A DNA stretch of 37,537 nucleotides from a virus. Made by a program: the position numbers and the translations under genes. The notes under the pieces were generated by a model. The model made no database searches and was not told the DNA's origin. It was given only the letters and a program-made list of their open reading frames with translations. The DNA is taken from IMG/VR virus record IMGVR_UViG_3300042543_000295, positions 1-37,537 of that record; one strand, 5' to 3'. Positions 848 through 35,477 of this stretch are shown here, piece after piece. Position 1 is the stretch's first letter. Each line of letters starts with the position of its first letter.

Positions 848-876
848 TTGACAACGTTTATATTTCATGGTATGAT
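848..876 (+). promoter_or_regulatory. Near-consensus sigma70-like promoter of the CRISPR module
   Basis: A perfect TTGACA -35 (848-853), 17-base spacer and TATGAT -10 (871-876) predict transcription starting near 882-884. No open frame starts just downstream. What follows is the structured RNA and then the repeat array, so this promoter most likely makes the tracrRNA-like transcript and perhaps, by read-through, the array and effector mRNA. It is one of the two best promoters in the window. Confidence 0.75.
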
Positions 877-882
877 ATTTCT

Positions 883-1072
883 CGCGTAGTAGTCACACAC
901 TGCGCGCCCCGTGCCTTGCGCGGACGATCTGCCCTGGTGCTTGCATTTGCGGCGGACGATACGCAGGGAGCCGAAAGGTCGGGGGCAATAGCTACTGTGT
1001 AGCGGCTAAATCCTGTTTTGGGGGAGTAGGGAAACCTACTCCCTGACCTTTTCGCAAACCACCCCCGTTTTT
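883..1072 (+). ncRNA. Candidate tracrRNA of the type V-like CRISPR module (about 190 nt)
   Basis: The RNA would start just after the strong promoter at 848-876. Bases 1006-1020 (CTAAATCCTGTTTTG) pair without interruption with 15 bases of the CRISPR repeat (CGAAGTAGGATTTAG): 11 Watson-Crick and 4 G-U pairs. A second segment, GTCACAC at 892-898, is the exact complement of the last seven repeat bases (GTGTGAC). Two separated anti-repeats, with the 5' one pairing next to the guide, is the layout known for Cas12b and Cas12f tracrRNAs. Other structure includes hairpin GCTAC/GTAGC (991-995/999-1003), a perfect 9-bp GAAA-loop hairpin GGGAGTAGG/CCTACTCCC (1022-1030/1035-1043), and a closing helix AAAGGTC/GACCTTT (974-980/1045-1051). 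CGGGGG (980-985) can pair with CCCCCG (1062-1067), which is followed by T5 at 1068-1072 and may end the RNA. A 9-base direct repeat GCGGACGAT occurs at 920-928 and 952-960. Exact ends are inferred. Confidence 0.75.
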
Positions 1073-1140
1073 GTGCAAAAAGTGAGTTGCGAACCGGCGA
1101 TGATGATGAGCGGAGAATCTGTCAATGGTGGCGAGAATTG

Positions 1141-1219: not shown

Positions 1220-1471
1220 GTTGCAGTAAGCGAAGTAGGATTTAGATAAGTGTGACTCTAGCCGCAACCCTGGCCGCACGCCTGAATGGGTTGCAGTAAG
1301 CGAAGTAGGATTTAGATAAGTGTGACTCGGCGGGACGAGAATCAAGCCGACAAGTAGCATGGTCGCAGTACGCGAAGTAGGATTTAGATAAGTGTGACAA
1401 CTCTATCAGAGCGGCAGCGCCCACATCGTCACCACGTTACAGTACGCGAAGTAGGATTTAGATAAGTGTGA
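1220..1471 (+). CRISPR. CRISPR mini-array: four 36-37-nt repeats, three spacers
   Basis: Repeats lie at 1220-1256, 1290-1326, 1362-1398 and 1436-1471. The first two are identical over 37 bases. The third differs at two positions and the fourth at two plus a final C-to-T change. The differences fall in the first ten bases or the last one, while the segment GCGAAGTAGG...AGTGTGA is invariant in all four. Spacers are 33 nt (1257-1289), 35 nt (1327-1361) and 37 nt (1399-1435) and unlike each other. Degeneration towards the right suggests the leader is on the left, so transcription is rightward and the conserved repeat end becomes the handle 5' of the guide, as in type V. The last repeat ends 15 bases before the effector ATG. 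No adaptation genes are present. Spacer targets cannot be determined by eye. Confidence 0.92.
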
Positions 1472-1486
1472 TATATAGGTGTGTCT

Positions 1487-3001
1487 ATGCAAAAACAAGC
1501 ATTCATCACCGTGTCGTTTCGCTTGCGAACCCCGACACGGCGCAAGCAAGAATTACTCGATTTCGCCATGCAGGAATATACAAGCCAGGTGCAGCGCTTG
1601 CTCGATTGGGCGCATGAACACCTGGACAACATTCGTACTAACGGGCGCACGAGTAAAGGCGTGTACAACGCCGATAGCATCCGGCCCTGCTTGCCCACTG
1701 GTACGGAGTGGCGCGTCCCGCTATCCTCATCACTAAAAGACGGCATCTTCTCGGACGTGTGCGGCATGATTGCCAGCTACTTGGAACTGGAAAGCACTGA
1801 CTTGCTGAACAACTGGCCGACGGCGGAAACCGTTGTCACCGACGAACCCCGCGCCCGCGCCTTGTCCGCATTTGGCACGTTGGATACAGTAGGGCGCGCC
1901 GGCACGCTGCGTTCTGCCGCTGATATTGCGGAGGTTGCAGACGAGGTGGCGCTGCTGCTTGACCGTCGCCGGGAAAGTGACTTAGCCGCCGATATGCGTC
2001 GCAAAGCCTTCGTCAAGGAGCGCCCACTGACTTACACGCGTGGCCGTGACTTTGACTTACTGATTACCTCCGACCTCAAGCATCCCTATATTTATTTGCC
2101 CCTGCTGCCCAACGATGATAAGCGCGCCGGCGTTACCGACTTTGGGCAAAAGAACATGCTGACCCTGTGGAGCAATGACCCGAATGGCGTCACCCCGATC
2201 CAGGCGGGCAAGAAGCGCAACGGGCTGCTGCTGCCGTTGGAACTTGGCAAGCGTGGCGGTCAATTCCACTGGCAGTTTCGTAAGTTTCTACTCGCCATGC
2301 TTGACGGCAATGGCGTTCCCAAATCGGCAAAAGTCATCAAGCGCCGTGGTCATTATTACATCAATGTGTCGGTAGCTTTCCCCGCGCCGGCGCCCTATGA
2401 GCCGCAGGGGTACATGGGGATTACCGACAACGTGCTTTACAACTTAACCTACGCCATTGTAGGCAAAACAGGTGAGTTGATGCAAACGCACCAGAGCGAA
2501 ACAGGTATTCTCGATTTGAAGATGGACGCGCAGAAGCAGATCCGTCGCAAGCAGCAGCAGGGCAAGGCGGTCTCCTACCTAGATTATCGCACATCAGCGC
2601 AGGATGAACTTTTGCACCTGATGATCAACCAAATGCTGCAAACGGCAAAGACGCACGGCGCTGGCATTGCAATGATGGATACCAACGGCATTTACAGCAA
2701 GCGTAACGAAAAGAAGCTGAAACGCCTATGGACAAAAGCGGAGTTCATCATTGCCTACAAATGTAAGATGATGGGCATCCCATACCGCACCGGTGTGTTT
2801 CCGGCGAAAGCGATGGGTATTTGCATCCGGTGTGGCGGCGACTGCTCGCGCCAAGAAAGCAATGCTGTTTGTGCGCAATGTGGGGCGTCTGTTCCGCTGG
2901 GGATTACGAAAGCCGTCAATATTGCGCGGCGGGTGATGTATCGCAAGAGTGAATGGGAAACTAAGGGAGGCTACCGTGGATTCCACCAAAGTTTTAGATA
3001 A
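1487..3001 (+). CDS. TnpB/Cas12-like (type V) RNA-guided effector with apparently inactive RuvC domain, 504 aa
   Basis: I chose ATG 1487 because AGG (1477-1479) sits 7 bases upstream; GTG 1481 is the alternative. The C-terminal third has the TnpB/Cas12 order RuvC-I, RuvC-II, zinc ribbon, RuvC-III. RuvC-I reads GITDNVLYNLTYAIV from residue 311, against the canonical G-I-D-x-G-x-x-N-L. RuvC-II reads IAMMDTNGI from 394, against I-V-x-E-D-L. The zinc ribbon CxxC-x12-CxxC (C446, C449, C462, C465) is intact. RuvC-III reads GITKAVNIARR from 472, against D-x-N-A-A-x-N-I-A. The three acidic positions thus become T313, M397 and G472, although D314 and D398 lie next to the first two sites. Residues 1-300 would be the recognition lobe and match nothing I recognise. 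Its size lies between TnpB (about 400 aa) and most Cas12. With its own tracrRNA and array, and no TnpA, it looks like a binding-only effector such as Cas12k, Cas12m or TldR, but I cannot place it in a named subtype. Confidence 0.87.
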   Translation: MQKQAFITVSFRLRTPTRRKQELLDFAMQEYTSQVQRLLDWAHEHLDNIRTNGRTSKGVYNADSIRPCLPTGTEWRVPLSSSLKDGIFSDVCGMIASYLELESTDLLNNWPTAETVVTDEPRARALSAFGTLDTVGRAGTLRSAADIAEVADEVALLLDRRRESDLAADMRRKAFVKERPLTYTRGRDFDLLITSDLKHPYIYLPLLPNDDKRAGVTDFGQKNMLTLWSNDPNGVTPIQAGKKRNGLLLPLELGKRGGQFHWQFRKFLLAMLDGNGVPKSAKVIKRRGHYYINVSVAFPAPAPYEPQGYMGITDNVLYNLTYAIVGKTGELMQTHQSETGILDLKMDAQKQIRRKQQQGKAVSYLDYRTSAQDELLHLMINQMLQTAKTHGAGIAMMDTNGIYSKRNEKKLKRLWTKAEFIIAYKCKMMGIPYRTGVFPAKAMGICIRCGGDCSRQESNAVCAQCGASVPLGITKAVNIARRVMYRKSEWETKGGYRGFHQSFR

Positions 3002-4163
3002 TGTTTTTACTGCCAACGAACGGGAAAGCATGACGATTGTTGAAGTTGATCCCGGTGAGCTCTTCATTGATTGGACAGTCAATGAAGCGCACGTCCAGGA
3101 GATCATCAATTCTCTGCCGGCGCACAAAGGTCAAATTGTTTTCCCGCCTTATGTCTGCCTGCACAATCGCAAAATTATCGACGGTCTACATCGCGTAGTG
3201 GCCGCGCATCGGGCAGGGATTGGCAAAATTCGTATTGTCCTGGTTGACCTTGCGGAAAGCCGCTTCTGGGATCTACGGATCATGGCCGCCAAACCACATC
3301 ACAGCATTGAAAATAGCCGTCTTTATGAATGGATGGAAAAGAGTTGGGAAACCGATTGGGGACACCGCACAAACGCGAAAGAGGAAATTGCTACCCATTT
3401 GTGGCAAATGTTTCGTGGGGAAAATTACCGCCAGTCGCAAAGCCTCTATGCCAAGTTAGACCGCAGTAAGTTGGTCGGCGAACAGGCGGAACTATACGAC
3501 TGGTTTGCCGCCAAATCGGTTGTATGGAATATCCCTGTTGAATCGCTGGCCGACCGCATCCTGTCCTTCTGGAATGTCGTACCACCCAGACCGGAGCTTG
3601 ACCAACTGGCGGGTGAATATGCGCTAACACTACCGGAGCGCAATCGATTGCAGGATGAAGCGCGCCGAACACCGGCAAAGCCAACCTACGTAAAAAAGTG
3701 GGTTGATGCTGGGATGCCCGACACGCTGCTGGAATTTGCCAAAAAGGAAAAAGCGCAGAAGGTTGAGCGCAAGAAGCGGGAGCGGGCAAGAGAGGAACAG
3801 AAAGCCGCTACACCCATCGGACAAGAGCAATTGCACCGCCGCCACTTCGCCACCGTGCGTGATGCCATCAACCGCGCCGGGGAGGAAGTTGCACGCGTAG
3901 CCGCTCTTTTCCCCCAGGTGCCAGAATCAGCCGCTATGCTGGCGACACACTTGGAAAGAGTGCGCACCTATGCGCAAGATATTGTTGACGTTCAGTCCGA
4001 CGCGATTGAGAAAGTACTGGCCGACAACGCCAGGCTCTACCGAGAGAACAGCGAGTTGCGTATCAAGGTGGCGTCGCTTGAGCGCGCTAATGGGAAAAAT
4101 ACCGAAATCTCATCCAGCGTACTGGCTTGGTCATCCCTGGAAATTTCTCGACAAAAGCAGTGA
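2976..4163 (+). CDS. ParB/sulfiredoxin-fold N-terminal domain protein with coiled-coil tail (395 aa), coupled to the Cas12-like effector
   Basis: GTG 2976 is preferred because GGGAGG (2965-2970) lies 5 bases upstream; the frame extends to 2949 without such a site. The gene overlaps the effector by 26 bases, so it is probably translationally coupled. Residues about 20-95 resemble the ParB/Srx fold: a V-x-P-x-x-L start, a helix, then IIDGLHRVVAAHRAG (67-81) with the D-G-x-H-R signature. This fold binds or hydrolyses nucleotides (CTP in ParB, ATP in sulfiredoxin, nuclease activity in some phage relatives). Residues about 245-275 are very rich in K, E and R, and about 335-370 look like a second coiled coil (SDAIEKVLADNARLYRENSE). 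The middle region is unrecognised. Its place suggests a partner of the RNA-guided effector, but a phage ParB-like gene that merely shares the operon remains possible. Confidence 0.8.
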   Translation: MDSTKVLDNVFTANERESMTIVEVDPGELFIDWTVNEAHVQEIINSLPAHKGQIVFPPYVCLHNRKIIDGLHRVVAAHRAGIGKIRIVLVDLAESRFWDLRIMAAKPHHSIENSRLYEWMEKSWETDWGHRTNAKEEIATHLWQMFRGENYRQSQSLYAKLDRSKLVGEQAELYDWFAAKSVVWNIPVESLADRILSFWNVVPPRPELDQLAGEYALTLPERNRLQDEARRTPAKPTYVKKWVDAGMPDTLLEFAKKEKAQKVERKKRERAREEQKAATPIGQEQLHRRHFATVRDAINRAGEEVARVAALFPQVPESAAMLATHLERVRTYAQDIVDVQSDAIEKVLADNARLYRENSELRIKVASLERANGKNTEISSSVLAWSSLEISRQKQ

Positions 4164-26193: not shown

Positions 26194-26670
26194 TTATGAT
26201 GCAATATCCACGAGGACGCGAGCCGTACCACCACTGGTGGTGACAGCGTTAGCCGCGTAGCCGATGATCCCGTCCGACAAAGTGCTGGTGCCGGGCGATT
26301 CCTCTTGCAGGAGGCCAGCACCGTTGCTCTCTAGCGCGTCACCGATGGTGATGGTGGCGGCATCCTCAACGATCATGATCAGTTGATCGCCAGGGATGGC
26401 GTGGATATAGCGCACGGTTTCGCCAGTAGCATAGGCGTGGTCGATGGCGCGGCCTGTGCCGTGGTCGCTGAACTCGTTTTCGAGCGCAACCAGGCGCCCC
26501 TTGGCGACACCGCCCTCGGTGCTATGCGCCTGAATCGTGCCACTGGTGGTAAGCTCGCAGAGCATCCCCGGCGTAATCGCACTGGCGGCTCTGGCTTCGC
26601 GCACACGTTGCACGATGTTGTCGGCATTGTTGGAGCGAATGACAATCGTGTTGTAAGTCGAACTAGCCAT
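26194..26670 (-). CDS. Head decoration-like structural protein (158 aa)
   Basis: It lies just upstream of the capsid gene and starts in the last base of the protease/scaffold stop. The sequence is beta-rich, with AITPGMLCELTTSGTIQ, ENEFSDHGTGRAIDHAYATG and ETVRYIHAIPGDQLIMIV, a pattern familiar in small capsid decoration or DUF2190-like proteins of siphophages: 'i.pG.lv.l...gtv......' followed by 'Y..Ge.v.......G......l'. It should be a surface or stabilising protein of the head. Confidence 0.75.
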   Translation of the reverse strand: MASSTYNTIVIRSNNADNIVQRVREARAASAITPGMLCELTTSGTIQAHSTEGGVAKGRLVALENEFSDHGTGRAIDHAYATGETVRYIHAIPGDQLIMIVEDAATITIGDALESNGAGLLQEESPGTSTLSDGIIGYAANAVTTSGGTARVLVDIAS

Positions 26671-28688
26671 TATTTGGCCTCCTTTTTCGGAAAGACGGGC
26701 GGCATCGCCATCGTGGTGTAGCGCGGTTCCTCAGTGGCGTTGGTCGCCACATTGCCGCTACCGACGTAAAGACGGGTCGCAAAGGCGCTTGTCAACTTGC
26801 GCAGGGTTTCCACCGGCATGGCTTTCAGTTCAGCCTCACTGAGTGTGTTGCGTTCGTTGGCGACTAAGCCAGCAACCAGATCGGCGCGCTCCTTGTCGGC
26901 GTTGGCAACCACACCGGATAGAGCCGCCGTCAACTTGTCAATGCCGCCGAATTGCTCGACAACCTTCGCTAGTTGTGCCAGTTCAGCCGGCACAACCTCT
27001 TTGACCACTTCCACCGGCGCTGGCTCGACGGCGGGTGATTCCTCATTGACAACTGGCTGCAATGAACTGGCGAACGCGGTCAGCGTTGCGTCGTCCATCG
27101 CCTCCAATTGTTGCTTGCTGCATTTGCATTGCGCATTGGCTGCAAGCCCTTCAATAATCTTGGTTCGATCCACTTTTTTACCTCCAAGTGAATTGATAAC
27201 ATTGCGCACCAATGCGCTAAGAAAAGATTGACTGGCGTTCTCTGCGGCTTTGGCTTCGTTGATGCGAGGAACCCCGCACCCATCCGCCCAGCTACACGCG
27301 CCGGTTTCGTTTAAGAGAATTGCGATATGATCGGGCCGCAGGTTGCGCGCAATGCCAGTGTAGGCTTTGCCGTCATGCGTACCTGGTTGATCAACCAAGT
27401 CGCGGAAGTAGCCCGTACTTACGTCGATGGCTTCGTTGTTGCGCAGGCGCTGCAATAGCTGTGTCGCCTGTCCGCCAAGCTTTTCGGCTTTAGTAATGTC
27501 AACCCAAAATTCACCTTTGAGCGCGTCGCCGTCGATATGAGCGTCCCAAAACATGGCCGGGGTTTCATCCCACAGATCCATGCTGTTGGCGCTGATCGCT
27601 TGCCCGTCCTGCTTCGGGTGGCCCAACGGCACAGGGCGCCCGTTCCAGGCGTCGGCGTATTTTGCCACCTCGTCAGCCGGCACAAACTCACCATTTAGCA
27701 CGCCAGAGCGAAGGGCCACCGTCGGCGCTACCAGATAACGCGTGCCTTTGCGCGTGACCTCCTTGACTGTCCCCGCCGTGGCGTTGGTGGTCAACTGCAC
27801 GGTGTTGCACCCACAATCCTCAGCGGCATTGGCGCGTATGTAGCCATCACCAGTCAGCGGAAAATCAACCTGTCTGGTGGCGACCGACACGCTGATAGAA
27901 CCAAATTCAAGCGGCATAGTGGGGATCATGCTGATAGGCGATTCGGCCCCCGGCTCAACCTCACTGAGTGTCATGTGTGGCGTAAATCCGTGGTTCATCG
28001 ACACTGGCACGTCGCTGTAGCGCAGGCGCTGCACAACCGCCTCACGCAGTCGTTCAAGTCCAGGCACATCAACCACGGCGTAAATCACATCCTTGCCATC
28101 GGAAAATTGGCTTGCATTAAAGCGGCCCATGCCATTAATCGCGCCGGCCAACTTTCCGAAGTCGCGCGCAATCTGTTGCGCTGCCACGATGGCGTTTGCC
28201 AGTTGTGCATCGGTCAAGGCATCCACTTTGCCGAGATAGGCCAGGGTAACGTGCAATGCGTCGGCGCTCATCTGTACACCAGGCATGGCCGCAATTTGTT
28301 GCGCCAATTCGGTGGACGGGAAAAGCGCCACCATTGCGCCGTTAAACTGCGCGCCCTCTGGCACGGTAAACAGGGTGGCGTTGTTGGCGGGTTGTACTTC
28401 GTTGTCTTGTTCGTTCACGGTTGCACCCTCATCGGTTCGCTGCCAATCGAGACACGCCCAGAAACCAGGCGCTAACGGGTCTTTCTTCGTGCTACAGCTA
28501 TGGCGCTCCAAAAATGCCTTGCGTCGGTCGGGATCGTCTCGCTTCATTTCCATGTCAGGATCGCCGTAGTGGACGAGGTAATCTTTGCCATCCTTCGTGA
28601 CAGTCCGCATATACTTTTTGTCGTCACGGGTTGAGGTTCTTCGCCCCGTCGCTGTGACTGTCACCCCGTTGTAGGTATAGCTCGGCAT
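26670..28688 (-). CDS. Fusion of 2H phosphoesterase-like domain, DUF2213 prohead protease and scaffold-like tail (672 aa)
   Basis: Residues 43-82 carry a C/D-rich motif seen in other phage head proteins (DDPDRRKAFLERHSCSTKKD). Residues about 105-280 form a 2H phosphoesterase-like domain: two H-x-T-L motifs, HVTLAYLG at 146 and HMTLSE at 238, with the usual spacing of about 90. Residues about 310-480 match DUF2213, a phage head maturation protease group: GHPKQDG with H357, IDVSTGYF with S424, and RPDHIAIL with H454 as candidate catalytic residues. The last 180 residues are acidic, helical and proline-linked, fitting a scaffold. The start is ATG 28688; the internal terminator 18 bases upstream is notable. 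The 2H domain could process RNA ends or cyclic nucleotides, as in Acb1 anti-CBASS proteins, but this is inference. Confidence 0.8.
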   Translation of the reverse strand: MPSYTYNGVTVTATGRRTSTRDDKKYMRTVTKDGKDYLVHYGDPDMEMKRDDPDRRKAFLERHSCSTKKDPLAPGFWACLDWQRTDEGATVNEQDNEVQPANNATLFTVPEGAQFNGAMVALFPSTELAQQIAAMPGVQMSADALHVTLAYLGKVDALTDAQLANAIVAAQQIARDFGKLAGAINGMGRFNASQFSDGKDVIYAVVDVPGLERLREAVVQRLRYSDVPVSMNHGFTPHMTLSEVEPGAESPISMIPTMPLEFGSISVSVATRQVDFPLTGDGYIRANAAEDCGCNTVQLTTNATAGTVKEVTRKGTRYLVAPTVALRSGVLNGEFVPADEVAKYADAWNGRPVPLGHPKQDGQAISANSMDLWDETPAMFWDAHIDGDALKGEFWVDITKAEKLGGQATQLLQRLRNNEAIDVSTGYFRDLVDQPGTHDGKAYTGIARNLRPDHIAILLNETGACSWADGCGVPRINEAKAAENASQSFLSALVRNVINSLGGKKVDRTKIIEGLAANAQCKCSKQQLEAMDDATLTAFASSLQPVVNEESPAVEPAPVEVVKEVVPAELAQLAKVVEQFGGIDKLTAALSGVVANADKERADLVAGLVANERNTLSEAELKAMPVETLRKLTSAFATRLYVGSGNVATNATEEPRYTTMAMPPVFPKKEAK

Positions 28689-33484: not shown

Positions 33485-33691
33485 ATGCAAGTTCGTAAAT
33501 CAATCAAGTTATCCGCCGACCTTTGGCGAAAGCTTGAAGCCATCGCCGCCGATGTCCAGGCCATTGCGCCACCTGGACAGGGAACCGGACAGCCGTCTTG
33601 GCGCTCACTGTTTAGCGAGATTGCAAAAGGCAATCTTATTGTTACACGAAAGGAACAAACTCATGACCAATCTCAAGACTCGAACCTATGA
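33485..33691 (+). CDS. Small protein, possibly ribbon-helix-helix-like (68 aa)
   Basis: GGAGG lies 7 bases upstream of ATG 33485. The N-terminus, MQVRKSIKLSADLWRKLEAI, has the strand-helix look of ribbon-helix-helix regulators (R-x-S-I-K-L-x-x-x-L-x-x-x-L), followed by a glycine/proline loop and a helix (SWRSLFSEIAKGNLIV). It is the first gene after a strong promoter and overlaps the radical SAM gene by 29 bases. An autoregulatory role is a reasonable guess only. Confidence 0.75.
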   Translation: MQVRKSIKLSADLWRKLEAIAADVQAIAPPGQGTGQPSWRSLFSEIAKGNLIVTRKEQTHDQSQDSNL

Positions 33692-35477
33692 ACTCGAAGA
33701 CAACGGTTGGAGCGTCAAAGGTTGCTCCATTGTCTACGCTCCTCGCGGTCAAGCTGGCGAATATGCCAAGCTTGCGACGAACCCTTACCGCGGATGCGGC
33801 CATGCCTGCGCTTATTGCCTCACGGGTGACACCATCATCCAGATGGCGGATGGCTCTACCAAGCAGCTTCGTGACATCGAAGTTGGCGATGCCGTCATCG
33901 GCGTTACCCTCAGTGACAGCAAGCGATCCTGGGGAACACGCATTACCGCCACTACAGTTTTGGCGAAAATTGCCACCCGCAAAGCCGCTTACAAAATCAC
34001 GTTGGCGGATGGCACTACGGCTGTTTGCTCTGCCGATCACCGCTGGCTTACCGAACGTGGTTGGAAATACACCGCTGATGATGGCAGTCACCGCCCACGC
34101 TTGACAACTAACAACTCGATTCGCAAGCTCGGAACTGCGACGCTTACCCCACTTGAGAGCGATGCGAATTTGGCGATTTATGATTACTCGCACAAACGCC
34201 GCCCGTCGGGGAAGACAGCGGGCGTTCAACATCGTTTTCGTTTGGCTCTCAAGGACACTTGCGCCTTGCATCGTACAAAATCCTATCTTACTCAGCATGG
34301 TATTGAAACAACTGACTTTGCTTTCCCTAGCGACGGTGAACCTATGCTTGCTATCGGCACCACTAGCCCCACGCGCTTTTCTGCAATCAAGGCAATGACT
34401 ACGCCGCAAGACGATCCAGAATGGCAGCGTGGTTGGTTGGCTGGCATCTTTGATGCAGAAGGAAGCCACGGCGTACAAGCTTTGCGAATTGCGAACTCTG
34501 ATACAGCCATCCTTGAGACTACCGAAAAAGCACTCTCCTTGTTCGGTTTTGACTATGTTCGCGAAGTCCCACCAAGTCGAGATGTTTGTTACATCCGCGT
34601 TCGTGGTGGCCGTCCCGAACATCTTAGATTCTGGCAACTGCTCAATCCTGCCATCAAGCGCAAGTTTGCCATTACTGGTCAAGCCATCAACGAAAGCGTC
34701 AAGATTGTCAGCGTTGAACCACTGAACGAAACTATGGATATGTTCGACATCATGACCGGCACTGAAAACTTTATCGCAAACGGCATGATCAGCCACAATT
34801 GTTATGTTCCGAAGGTTCTAAAAATGGATCGCCCGACCTTCGACGCTGGCGCATTCCCTCGTACTGACTTTCTTGATGCCTTACGCAAGGACGCCCGCAA
34901 GTATCAGGCGCTTGGCATTGCCGAACAGGTTATGCTCAGTTTTACCACCGACCCCTATCACCCCGGCGACAACTCGCTTACCCGTGACGTGTTGACCACG
35001 TTGCAGAGCTACGGACTTGGCGTCTGTACGCTGACAAAGGGTGGCAGTCGGTCGATTCGTGACATTGACATCTTTCGCCCTGACCGCGACGCCTTTGCCA
35101 GCACCTTGACCACACTTGACGACGATTTTAGCCGCAAGTGGGAGCGGGGCGCCCAACTTCCCGGCGACCGCATTGCGACACTCAAGGCGTTTCATGACGC
35201 CGGGATATTCACGTGGGTCAGCCTGGAGCCGACGCTGAATACCGAATCGTCGCTTGCCATCATCGAACACACGCACGAGTTTGTTGACCTGTACAAAATC
35301 GGGCGGGCTAACTACCTGCCCATGACCAACACAACCGATTGGGAAAGCTACACCTGCCGCACTCTGGAACTGGTCAACCGACTTGGCGTCAAGCATTACA
35401 TTAAAAAGGATCTTCAGCCCTTTTTACCCGCTGGTTACTACAACCCGAAATATATCAACCAGCATCATGGGGCATAA
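33663..35477 (+). CDS. Spore photoproduct lyase-like radical SAM protein interrupted by an intein (604 aa precursor, 276 aa spliced)
   Basis: ATG 33663 follows AAAGGA at good spacing. The N-extein reads KLATNPYRGCGHACAY and the C-extein CYVPKVLKMDRPTF; joined they give GCGHACAYCYVP, the CxxxCxxC cluster motif of radical SAM enzymes of the SPL-like type. C45 and C49 are in the N-extein, and the third cysteine is the +1 residue after the intein (residue 380). The rest fits a TIM-barrel: VMLSFTTDPYHPGDN, YGLGVCTLTKGG, FTWVSLEPTLN and VDLYKIGRANYL. Such phage proteins may repair or modify DNA or tRNA, but the substrate is not evident. The last 23 bases overlap the end of the convergent gene. Confidence 0.9.
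   Translation: MTNLKTRTYELEDNGWSVKGCSIVYAPRGQAGEYAKLATNPYRGCGHACAYCLTGDTIIQMADGSTKQLRDIEVGDAVIGVTLSDSKRSWGTRITATTVLAKIATRKAAYKITLADGTTAVCSADHRWLTERGWKYTADDGSHRPRLTTNNSIRKLGTATLTPLESDANLAIYDYSHKRRPSGKTAGVQHRFRLALKDTCALHRTKSYLTQHGIETTDFAFPSDGEPMLAIGTTSPTRFSAIKAMTTPQDDPEWQRGWLAGIFDAEGSHGVQALRIANSDTAILETTEKALSLFGFDYVREVPPSRDVCYIRVRGGRPEHLRFWQLLNPAIKRKFAITGQAINESVKIVSVEPLNETMDMFDIMTGTENFIANGMISHNCYVPKVLKMDRPTFDAGAFPRTDFLDALRKDARKYQALGIAEQVMLSFTTDPYHPGDNSLTRDVLTTLQSYGLGVCTLTKGGSRSIRDIDIFRPDRDAFASTLTTLDDDFSRKWERGAQLPGDRIATLKAFHDAGIFTWVSLEPTLNTESSLAIIEHTHEFVDLYKIGRANYLPMTNTTDWESYTCRTLELVNRLGVKHYIKKDLQPFLPAGYYNPKYINQHHGA
33816..34799 (+). mobile_element. LAGLIDADG intein (328 aa, in-frame) in the radical SAM gene
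   Basis: The element starts with Cys (residue 52) in CLTGDTIIQMADGSTKQL, the standard splicing block A, and has block B at AVCSADHRWLTERGW. The homing endonuclease core is visible at WLAGIFDAEGSHG. The end NFIANGMISHN followed by Cys is block F/G with the terminal His-Asn and a +1 Cys. All residues needed for splicing appear present. The insertion site is the third cysteine of the iron-sulfur motif, so only spliced protein can be active. Confidence 0.95.

What the first reader, a model, noticed from the sequence alone, without database searches (positions are those of the whole stretch)
883..1072. tracrRNA with two anti-repeats and a possible pseudoknot
CTAAATCCTGTTTTG (1006-1020) forms 15 contiguous pairs with the repeat, and GTCACAC (892-898) complements its guide-proximal end exactly. 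Three local helices and a CGGGGG/CCCCCG long-range pairing before T5 add a compact fold. The order (guide-proximal anti-repeat first, main anti-repeat later) recalls Cas12b and Cas12f RNAs. The anti-repeat targets lie in the invariant part of all four repeats.
Basis: seen in the sequence. Interest (0 to 1): 0.82.

Follow-up and report, generated by a model that had tools for sequence, protein, structure and literature searches.

The report
Phage tracrRNA for a dead Cas12
This phage carries a small CRISPR system whose guide-helper RNA (tracrRNA) grips the guide in two places, as in Cas12f systems, but whose Cas12 protein has lost all three DNA-cutting residues, so it probably silences its targets by binding them rather than cutting them.

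Summary
Within 883-1073, CTAAATCCTGTTTTG (1006-1020) is the longest complement to the CRISPR repeat in the whole window: 15 contiguous pairs, 3 of them G-U. GTCACAC (892-898) complements the guide-proximal end of the repeat and lies in the loop of an 8-bp hairpin. That hairpin and the order of the two anti-repeats match the published Un1Cas12f1 guide RNA. In a sister phage with 11 entirely different spacers, these 191 bases are identical while the flanks differ by 7-13%. All repeat variants inside the main anti-repeat target keep the pairing. A tracrRNA is therefore well supported. Covariation inside it cannot be tested, because only two identical copies exist. The CGGGGG/CCCCCG helix folds as a nested, terminator-like closing stem, and its length alone is not beyond chance.

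The larger finding is the effector at 1481-3001. It is a Cas12f/TnpB-like protein with Thr, Met and Gly in place of the Asp, Glu and Asp of RuvC, under strong purifying selection (dN/dS about 0.08). No Cas1 was found in either phage, and no spacer target was found. Best reading: a phage-encoded, cleavage-dead, tracrRNA-dependent type V system acting by guided DNA binding. It is a new variant of a known kind; transcription and activity are unproven.

The parts
848..876 (+). sigma-70-type promoter TTGACA-N17-TATGAT for the tracrRNA
   Evidence: 11 of 12 matches with TG extension; kept in L001 apart from one spacer base
883..1073 (+). predicted tracrRNA, about 190 nt
   Evidence: 0 of 191 differences to sister phage against 26/206 upstream and 11/146 downstream; anti-repeats; no Rfam match
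883..906 (+). hairpin (883-890/899-906) presenting anti-repeat 1 in its loop
   Evidence: pair probability 0.96; same arrangement as Stem 3 of Un1Cas12f1 guide RNA
892..898 (+). anti-repeat 1, GTCACAC, pairs with guide-proximal repeat end GTGTGAC
914..968 (+). long internal hairpin (914-920/962-968 outer stem)
   Evidence: MFE and centroid fold
991..1003 (+). small hairpin GCTAC-TGT-GTAGC
   Evidence: pair probability about 0.76
1006..1020 (+). anti-repeat 2 (main), CTAAATCCTGTTTTG, pairs with repeat positions 12-26
   Evidence: longest complement to the repeat in the window; repeat variants keep pairing
1022..1043 (+). 3' hairpin GGGAGTAGG-GAAA-CCTACTCCC
980..1072 (+). long-range closing helix CGGGGG (980-985)/CCCCCG (1062-1067) followed by T5 (1068-1072), terminator-like
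   Evidence: pair probability about 0.66; pairing length alone not beyond chance
1220..1472 (+). CRISPR array: four 37-nt repeats (1220, 1290, 1362, 1436), three spacers of 33-37 nt; last repeat degenerate
   Evidence: 12 repeats and 11 different spacers at the same place in L001
1481..3001 (+). cleavage-dead Cas12f/TnpB-like effector, 506 aa; catalytic positions T315, M399, G474; zinc-ribbon cysteines kept
   Evidence: dN/dS 0.08
2949..4163 (+). ParB-like protein gene overlapping the effector's 3' end (likely start GTG at 2976); possible operon partner
   Evidence: PHROG 8071 ParB-like, E=0.003; dN/dS about 0.10

Best explanation
A phage-encoded type V CRISPR system that works by guided binding. 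The 883-1073 RNA is transcribed from 848-876. It pairs with each repeat of the array transcript through a 15-bp main duplex (1006-1020) and a short loop-to-repeat duplex (892-898) next to the guide. The resulting dual RNA loads into the Cas12f/TnpB-like protein at 1481-3001. That protein has lost the whole RuvC triad, so it should bind matching DNA and block transcription or another process there, not cut it. Shown here: the sequence complementarity, the conservation, the loss of the triad, purifying selection on the protein, and spacer turnover. Inferred: transcription, dual-RNA assembly, DNA binding, silencing, and the targets (competing phages, plasmids or host genes).
For: Anti-repeats far beyond chance and co-folding at both sites. 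The 191-nt RNA is invariant while flanks differ. All three variable repeat positions inside the main duplex keep pairing through G-U/Watson-Crick changes, while five variable positions lie outside the paired segments. Protein-level Cas12f similarity: PADLOC E=6.5e-7, NCBIfam TnpB E=1.2e-10, profile against PDB Cas12f E=3.5e-12, best Foldseek hits all Cas12f. Triad D/E/D replaced by T/M/G in both phages while six comparators keep it. dN/dS 0.08. All 14 spacers differ between two sister phages and repeat variants occur in blocks, as expected from polarised repeat duplication. Precedent: inactivated type V effectors silence by binding (PMC12669027; PMC10442227).
Against: No spacer matches anything searched, so the target class is unknown. 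No transcript data. No covariation inside the tracrRNA can be tested. Fold stability is only z -1.65. The structure models are low confidence (pLDDT 54). Curated family cut-offs are not reached. No Cas1 in either phage, so how spacers change is unexplained.
Confidence: 0.72

Rival explanations
1. The effector and tracrRNA act as a decoy (anti-CRISPR): the dead protein, with phage tracrRNA, sequesters host crRNAs or competes with a host type V nuclease.
For: A phage-encoded inactivated Cas9 with its own tracrRNA is proposed to do this (PMC11656645).
Against: This phage has its own multi-spacer array that turns over between sister phages, which a pure decoy would not need; no bacterial genome scanned carries the repeat core.
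Confidence: 0.12
2. The effector still cleaves nucleic acid through a rearranged active site (for example the neighbouring D316 and D400).
For: Acidic residues sit next to two of the three lost positions (GITDN, MMDTN).
Against: All three canonical columns are replaced and the RuvC-III position is Gly with no acidic neighbour in PLGIT; about 13 residues between RuvC-II and the zinc ribbon are missing relative to active relatives.
Confidence: 0.08
3. A decaying remnant: the effector is a dying nuclease and the RNA a leftover.
For: Loss of the catalytic triad; no Cas1 found; no spacer targets found.
Against: dN/dS 0.08, intact 506-aa frame in both phages, invariant RNA, array growth and spacer turnover.
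Confidence: 0.04
4. 883-1073 is not a tracrRNA but another conserved small RNA or leader, and the anti-repeats are coincidence.
For: Folding z-score is modest; no Rfam match.
Against: Both anti-repeats together in 0 of 3000 shuffles; position next to array and effector; Cas12f-like order.
Confidence: 0.04

Closest known systems
Type V-F Cas12f (Un1Cas12f1, OsCas12f, AsCas12f)
   Same: Small effector with RuvC and zinc-ribbon; tracrRNA with a short guide-proximal anti-repeat in a hairpin loop and a later main anti-repeat (PMC8053092); best hits by profile and by fold.
   Different: All three RuvC catalytic residues lost; upstream stems 1-2 of Un1Cas12f1 absent; extra 3' hairpin and closing helix after the main anti-repeat; curated Cas12f2 cut-off not reached (31 against 450 bits); phage-encoded.
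Type V-M Cas12m
   Same: Naturally non-cutting small Cas12 carried on mobile elements, with transcriptional silencing by binding (PMC10442227, PMC11656645).
   Different: Cas12m2 uses crRNA alone and keeps part of its triad (His-Asp-Asp); here a tracrRNA is predicted and the triad is T/M/G. Sequence match to a Cas12m structure is weak.
TldR, TnpB-like nuclease-dead repressors of phages
   Same: Phage-encoded, RuvC-dead, RNA-guided DNA binding in place of cutting (PMC13418256).
   Different: TldRs use a guide RNA cassette without a CRISPR array and regulate fixed host genes; here a multi-spacer array with turnover and a separate tracrRNA.
dCas12f complexes (PDB 9n9c, 9n9m)
   Same: dCas12f-guide RNA structures appear among the fold matches.
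   Different: Found only as structure entries; no paper on them was held, so the biology could not be compared.
Phage J2-1-like Cas12/TnpB relatives (L007, L008, L013)
   Same: Nearest full-length distant relatives (23-28% identity).
   Different: Canonical D/E/D triad, RNA located 3' of the gene, unrelated short palindromic repeats.

Membership tests
tracrRNA (trans-activating CRISPR RNA) | Anti-repeat complementary to the array's repeat, near a class 2 effector | tested here: met
tracrRNA (trans-activating CRISPR RNA) | Transcribed as a small RNA and bound to effector and crRNA | not testable with these tools
   only a promoter-like site; no RNA data
tracrRNA (trans-activating CRISPR RNA) | Compensatory change between anti-repeat and repeat across homologues | tested here: inconclusive
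   anti-repeat invariant in the only homologue; repeat-side changes all keep pairing
Type V-F (Cas12f) | Small RuvC effector with zinc-ribbon, most similar to Cas12f | tested here: met
   four cysteines kept
Type V-F (Cas12f) | Score above curated Cas12f family cut-off | tested here: not met
   NCBIfam Cas12f2 31.1 against 450 bits; Pfam TNB domain 16.1 against 26.3
Type V-F (Cas12f) | Canonical D/E/D RuvC triad | tested here: not met
   T315, M399, G474
Type V-F (Cas12f) | tracrRNA with loop anti-repeat plus later main anti-repeat | tested here: met
   against PMC8053092
Type V-M (Cas12m) | crRNA-only guide, no tracrRNA | tested here: not met
   tracrRNA predicted
Type V-M (Cas12m) | Binds without cutting | not testable with these tools
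   triad loss only suggests it
TldR | Guide RNA without CRISPR array | tested here: not met
   4-repeat and 12-repeat arrays
Complete adaptive CRISPR-Cas locus | Cas1 adaptation gene | tested here: not met
   no Cas1 in either phage record; records may be incomplete

The most novel reading that the evidence does not exclude
A phage-encoded, cleavage-dead, tracrRNA-dependent Cas12 acts together with the ParB-like protein encoded in the same operon: the guide-directed complex marks chosen DNA and the partner spreads on it or occludes it, giving a programmable silencing or partition-interference system.
Probability: 0.1. Interest if true: 0.85.

Novelty: new variant of a known kind. Interest (0 to 1): 0.62.

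Why it matters
It joins three things usually seen apart: a Cas12f-like two-point tracrRNA, a fully dead RuvC site under purifying selection, and a fast-changing array on a phage that is probably well below jumbo size (records of 37.5 and 62.6 kb, possibly partial). If it silences by binding, it is a natural phage-borne CRISPR interference system. It would make testable whether phages use non-cutting CRISPR against rivals or hosts, and how an array gains spacers without its own Cas1. The relatives may also show how single-guide TnpB RNAs split into tracrRNA plus array.

Tried and rejected
Spacer targets: searched against the window and sister phage, phage records and plasmids (one chance-level hit, E=9), plus two exact scans of viral contigs (one search returned only its own array). 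Nothing found. Repeat core in bacterial genomes: none. Other close effector or ParB-like relatives in viral contigs: only the sister phage. Rfam: none. Two AlphaFold models stayed near pLDDT 54, so fold matches are supportive only. A third contact between the repeat's 5' end and 1051-1060 was considered and dropped: repeat variants break it. A resemblance to the Un1Cas12f1 repeat sequence was recalled from memory but could not be confirmed and is not used as evidence.

Full report
WHAT WAS CHECKED. The window is a 37.5 kb virus record with tailed-phage genes: terminase and portal. At its left end lie, all on the + strand, a promoter-like site, a non-coding stretch, a four-repeat CRISPR array, a 506-aa Cas12-like gene and a ParB-like gene.

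THE ANTI-REPEATS. The repeat is GTTGCAGTAAGCGAAGTAGGATTTAGATAAGTGTGAC. Bases 1006-1020 pair with repeat positions 12-26 over 15 contiguous pairs, 3 of them G-U. No other place in the window outside the array reaches 14. Shuffles of the region reach 15 with probability about 0.0007. Bases 892-898 complement the last seven bases of the repeat (shuffle probability 0.005); both features together occurred in 0 of 3000 shuffles. Co-folding of the RNA with two repeat variants forms both duplexes. Folded alone, the RNA places GTCACAC in the loop of an 8-bp hairpin with pair probability 0.96. In Un1Cas12f1, the loop of Stem 3 forms anti-repeat:repeat duplex 1 next to the guide, and the tracrRNA 3' end forms duplex 2 (PMC8053092). 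The order and the loop presentation are the same here. Differences: no stems upstream of this hairpin, and an additional 3' hairpin plus a closing helix after the main anti-repeat.

THE PSEUDOKNOT. CGGGGG (980-985) and CCCCCG (1062-1067) do pair in the prediction, just before T5, but nested, as a terminator-like closing stem. Six-base complements are not rare here (10 against 5 expected). The total fold is only z -1.65 better than shuffles. This part of the finding is plausible but not established.

CONSERVATION. One close relative was found (L001; IMG/VR 3300044636_000600). Its contig is a sister phage, 86-95% identical over most of its length. Between the two, 883-1073 shows 0 of 191 differences. 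The upstream ORF shows 26 of 206, the array leader 11 of 146 (Fisher p = 8e-5) and the effector 37 of 1518 (p = 0.03). The invariance includes the promoter apart from one spacer base. The two arrays share no spacer (3 against 11). Variable repeat positions inside the main duplex (G/A, G/A, T/C) all keep pairing, two of them together turning G-U and U-G into A-U and C-G. The other variable positions lie outside both duplexes. This is repeat-side support for the pairing, not covariation in the tracrRNA, which cannot be tested with two identical copies. Repeat variants in the sister array occur in blocks (p = 0.0003), as expected if new repeats are copied from a neighbour.

THE EFFECTOR. Sequence profiles point to Cas12f/TnpB: PADLOC Cas12f E=6.5e-7, NCBIfam TnpB E=1.2e-10, an alignment profile against PDB Cas12f E=3.5e-12. 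The low-confidence model's best fold matches are all Cas12f. No curated cut-off is reached. In the alignment with six relatives that keep D, E and D, the window protein has T315, M399 and G474. The zinc-ribbon cysteines remain. dN/dS against the sister phage is about 0.08, so the dead protein is maintained, not decaying. No Cas1 was found in either record, though both may be fragments.

MECHANISM. Most likely (0.72) the RNA pairs with array transcripts, the dual RNA guides the dead effector to matching DNA, and binding blocks transcription or another process. Inactivated type V subtypes are known to act this way (V-C and V-M; PMC12669027). The targets are unknown, because no spacer matched anything searched. 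A decoy role, as proposed for a phage inactivated Cas9 (PMC11656645), is the main rival, but it does not explain a changing array.

NOVELTY. Virus-encoded compact type V effectors, some without recognisable RuvC motifs, have been reported (PMC12607003), as have inactivated type V subtypes. The combination here of a phage, a tracrRNA with Cas12f-like two-point pairing, complete loss of the triad under purifying selection, and spacer turnover without Cas1 was not found described in the papers read. That makes it a new variant of a known kind. It works like a Cas12f dual-RNA system, but it is not filed as V-F, because the catalytic triad and the family cut-off were tested and not met.

Noticed in passing
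L013 2300-4250, L008 901-2805, L007 3611-5335: The nearest distant relatives (phage J2-1 and kin) keep the catalytic triad. In L013 and L008 a conserved stretch 3' of the gene ends in a 10-base anti-repeat (TGATATAACA, GATATAACAC), followed by 3 and 2 palindromic repeats at 60-nt spacing. In J2-1 the same sequence seems fused into one guide RNA. This may be a natural single-guide to tracrRNA-plus-array transition.
   Followed up: partly
window 2949-4163: A ParB-like gene overlaps the effector's 3' end and is conserved beside it in the sister phage; possible functional partner.
   Followed up: partly
window 33534-35477: Radical SAM protein interrupted by an intein with a LAGLIDADG-type domain (Pfam hits).
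   Followed up: no
window 26670-28688: 672-aa protein matching 2'-5' RNA ligase and DUF2213 families.
   Followed up: no
L001 5148-5991: Sister array of 12 repeats in blocks of identical variants (2, 5, 2, 2, 1) with 11 unique spacers although no Cas1 was found in the phage.
   Followed up: yes
L004 3611-5062: The Cas12/TnpB-like gene of Pseudoalteromonas phage J2-1 is unannotated in the GenBank record.
   Followed up: no
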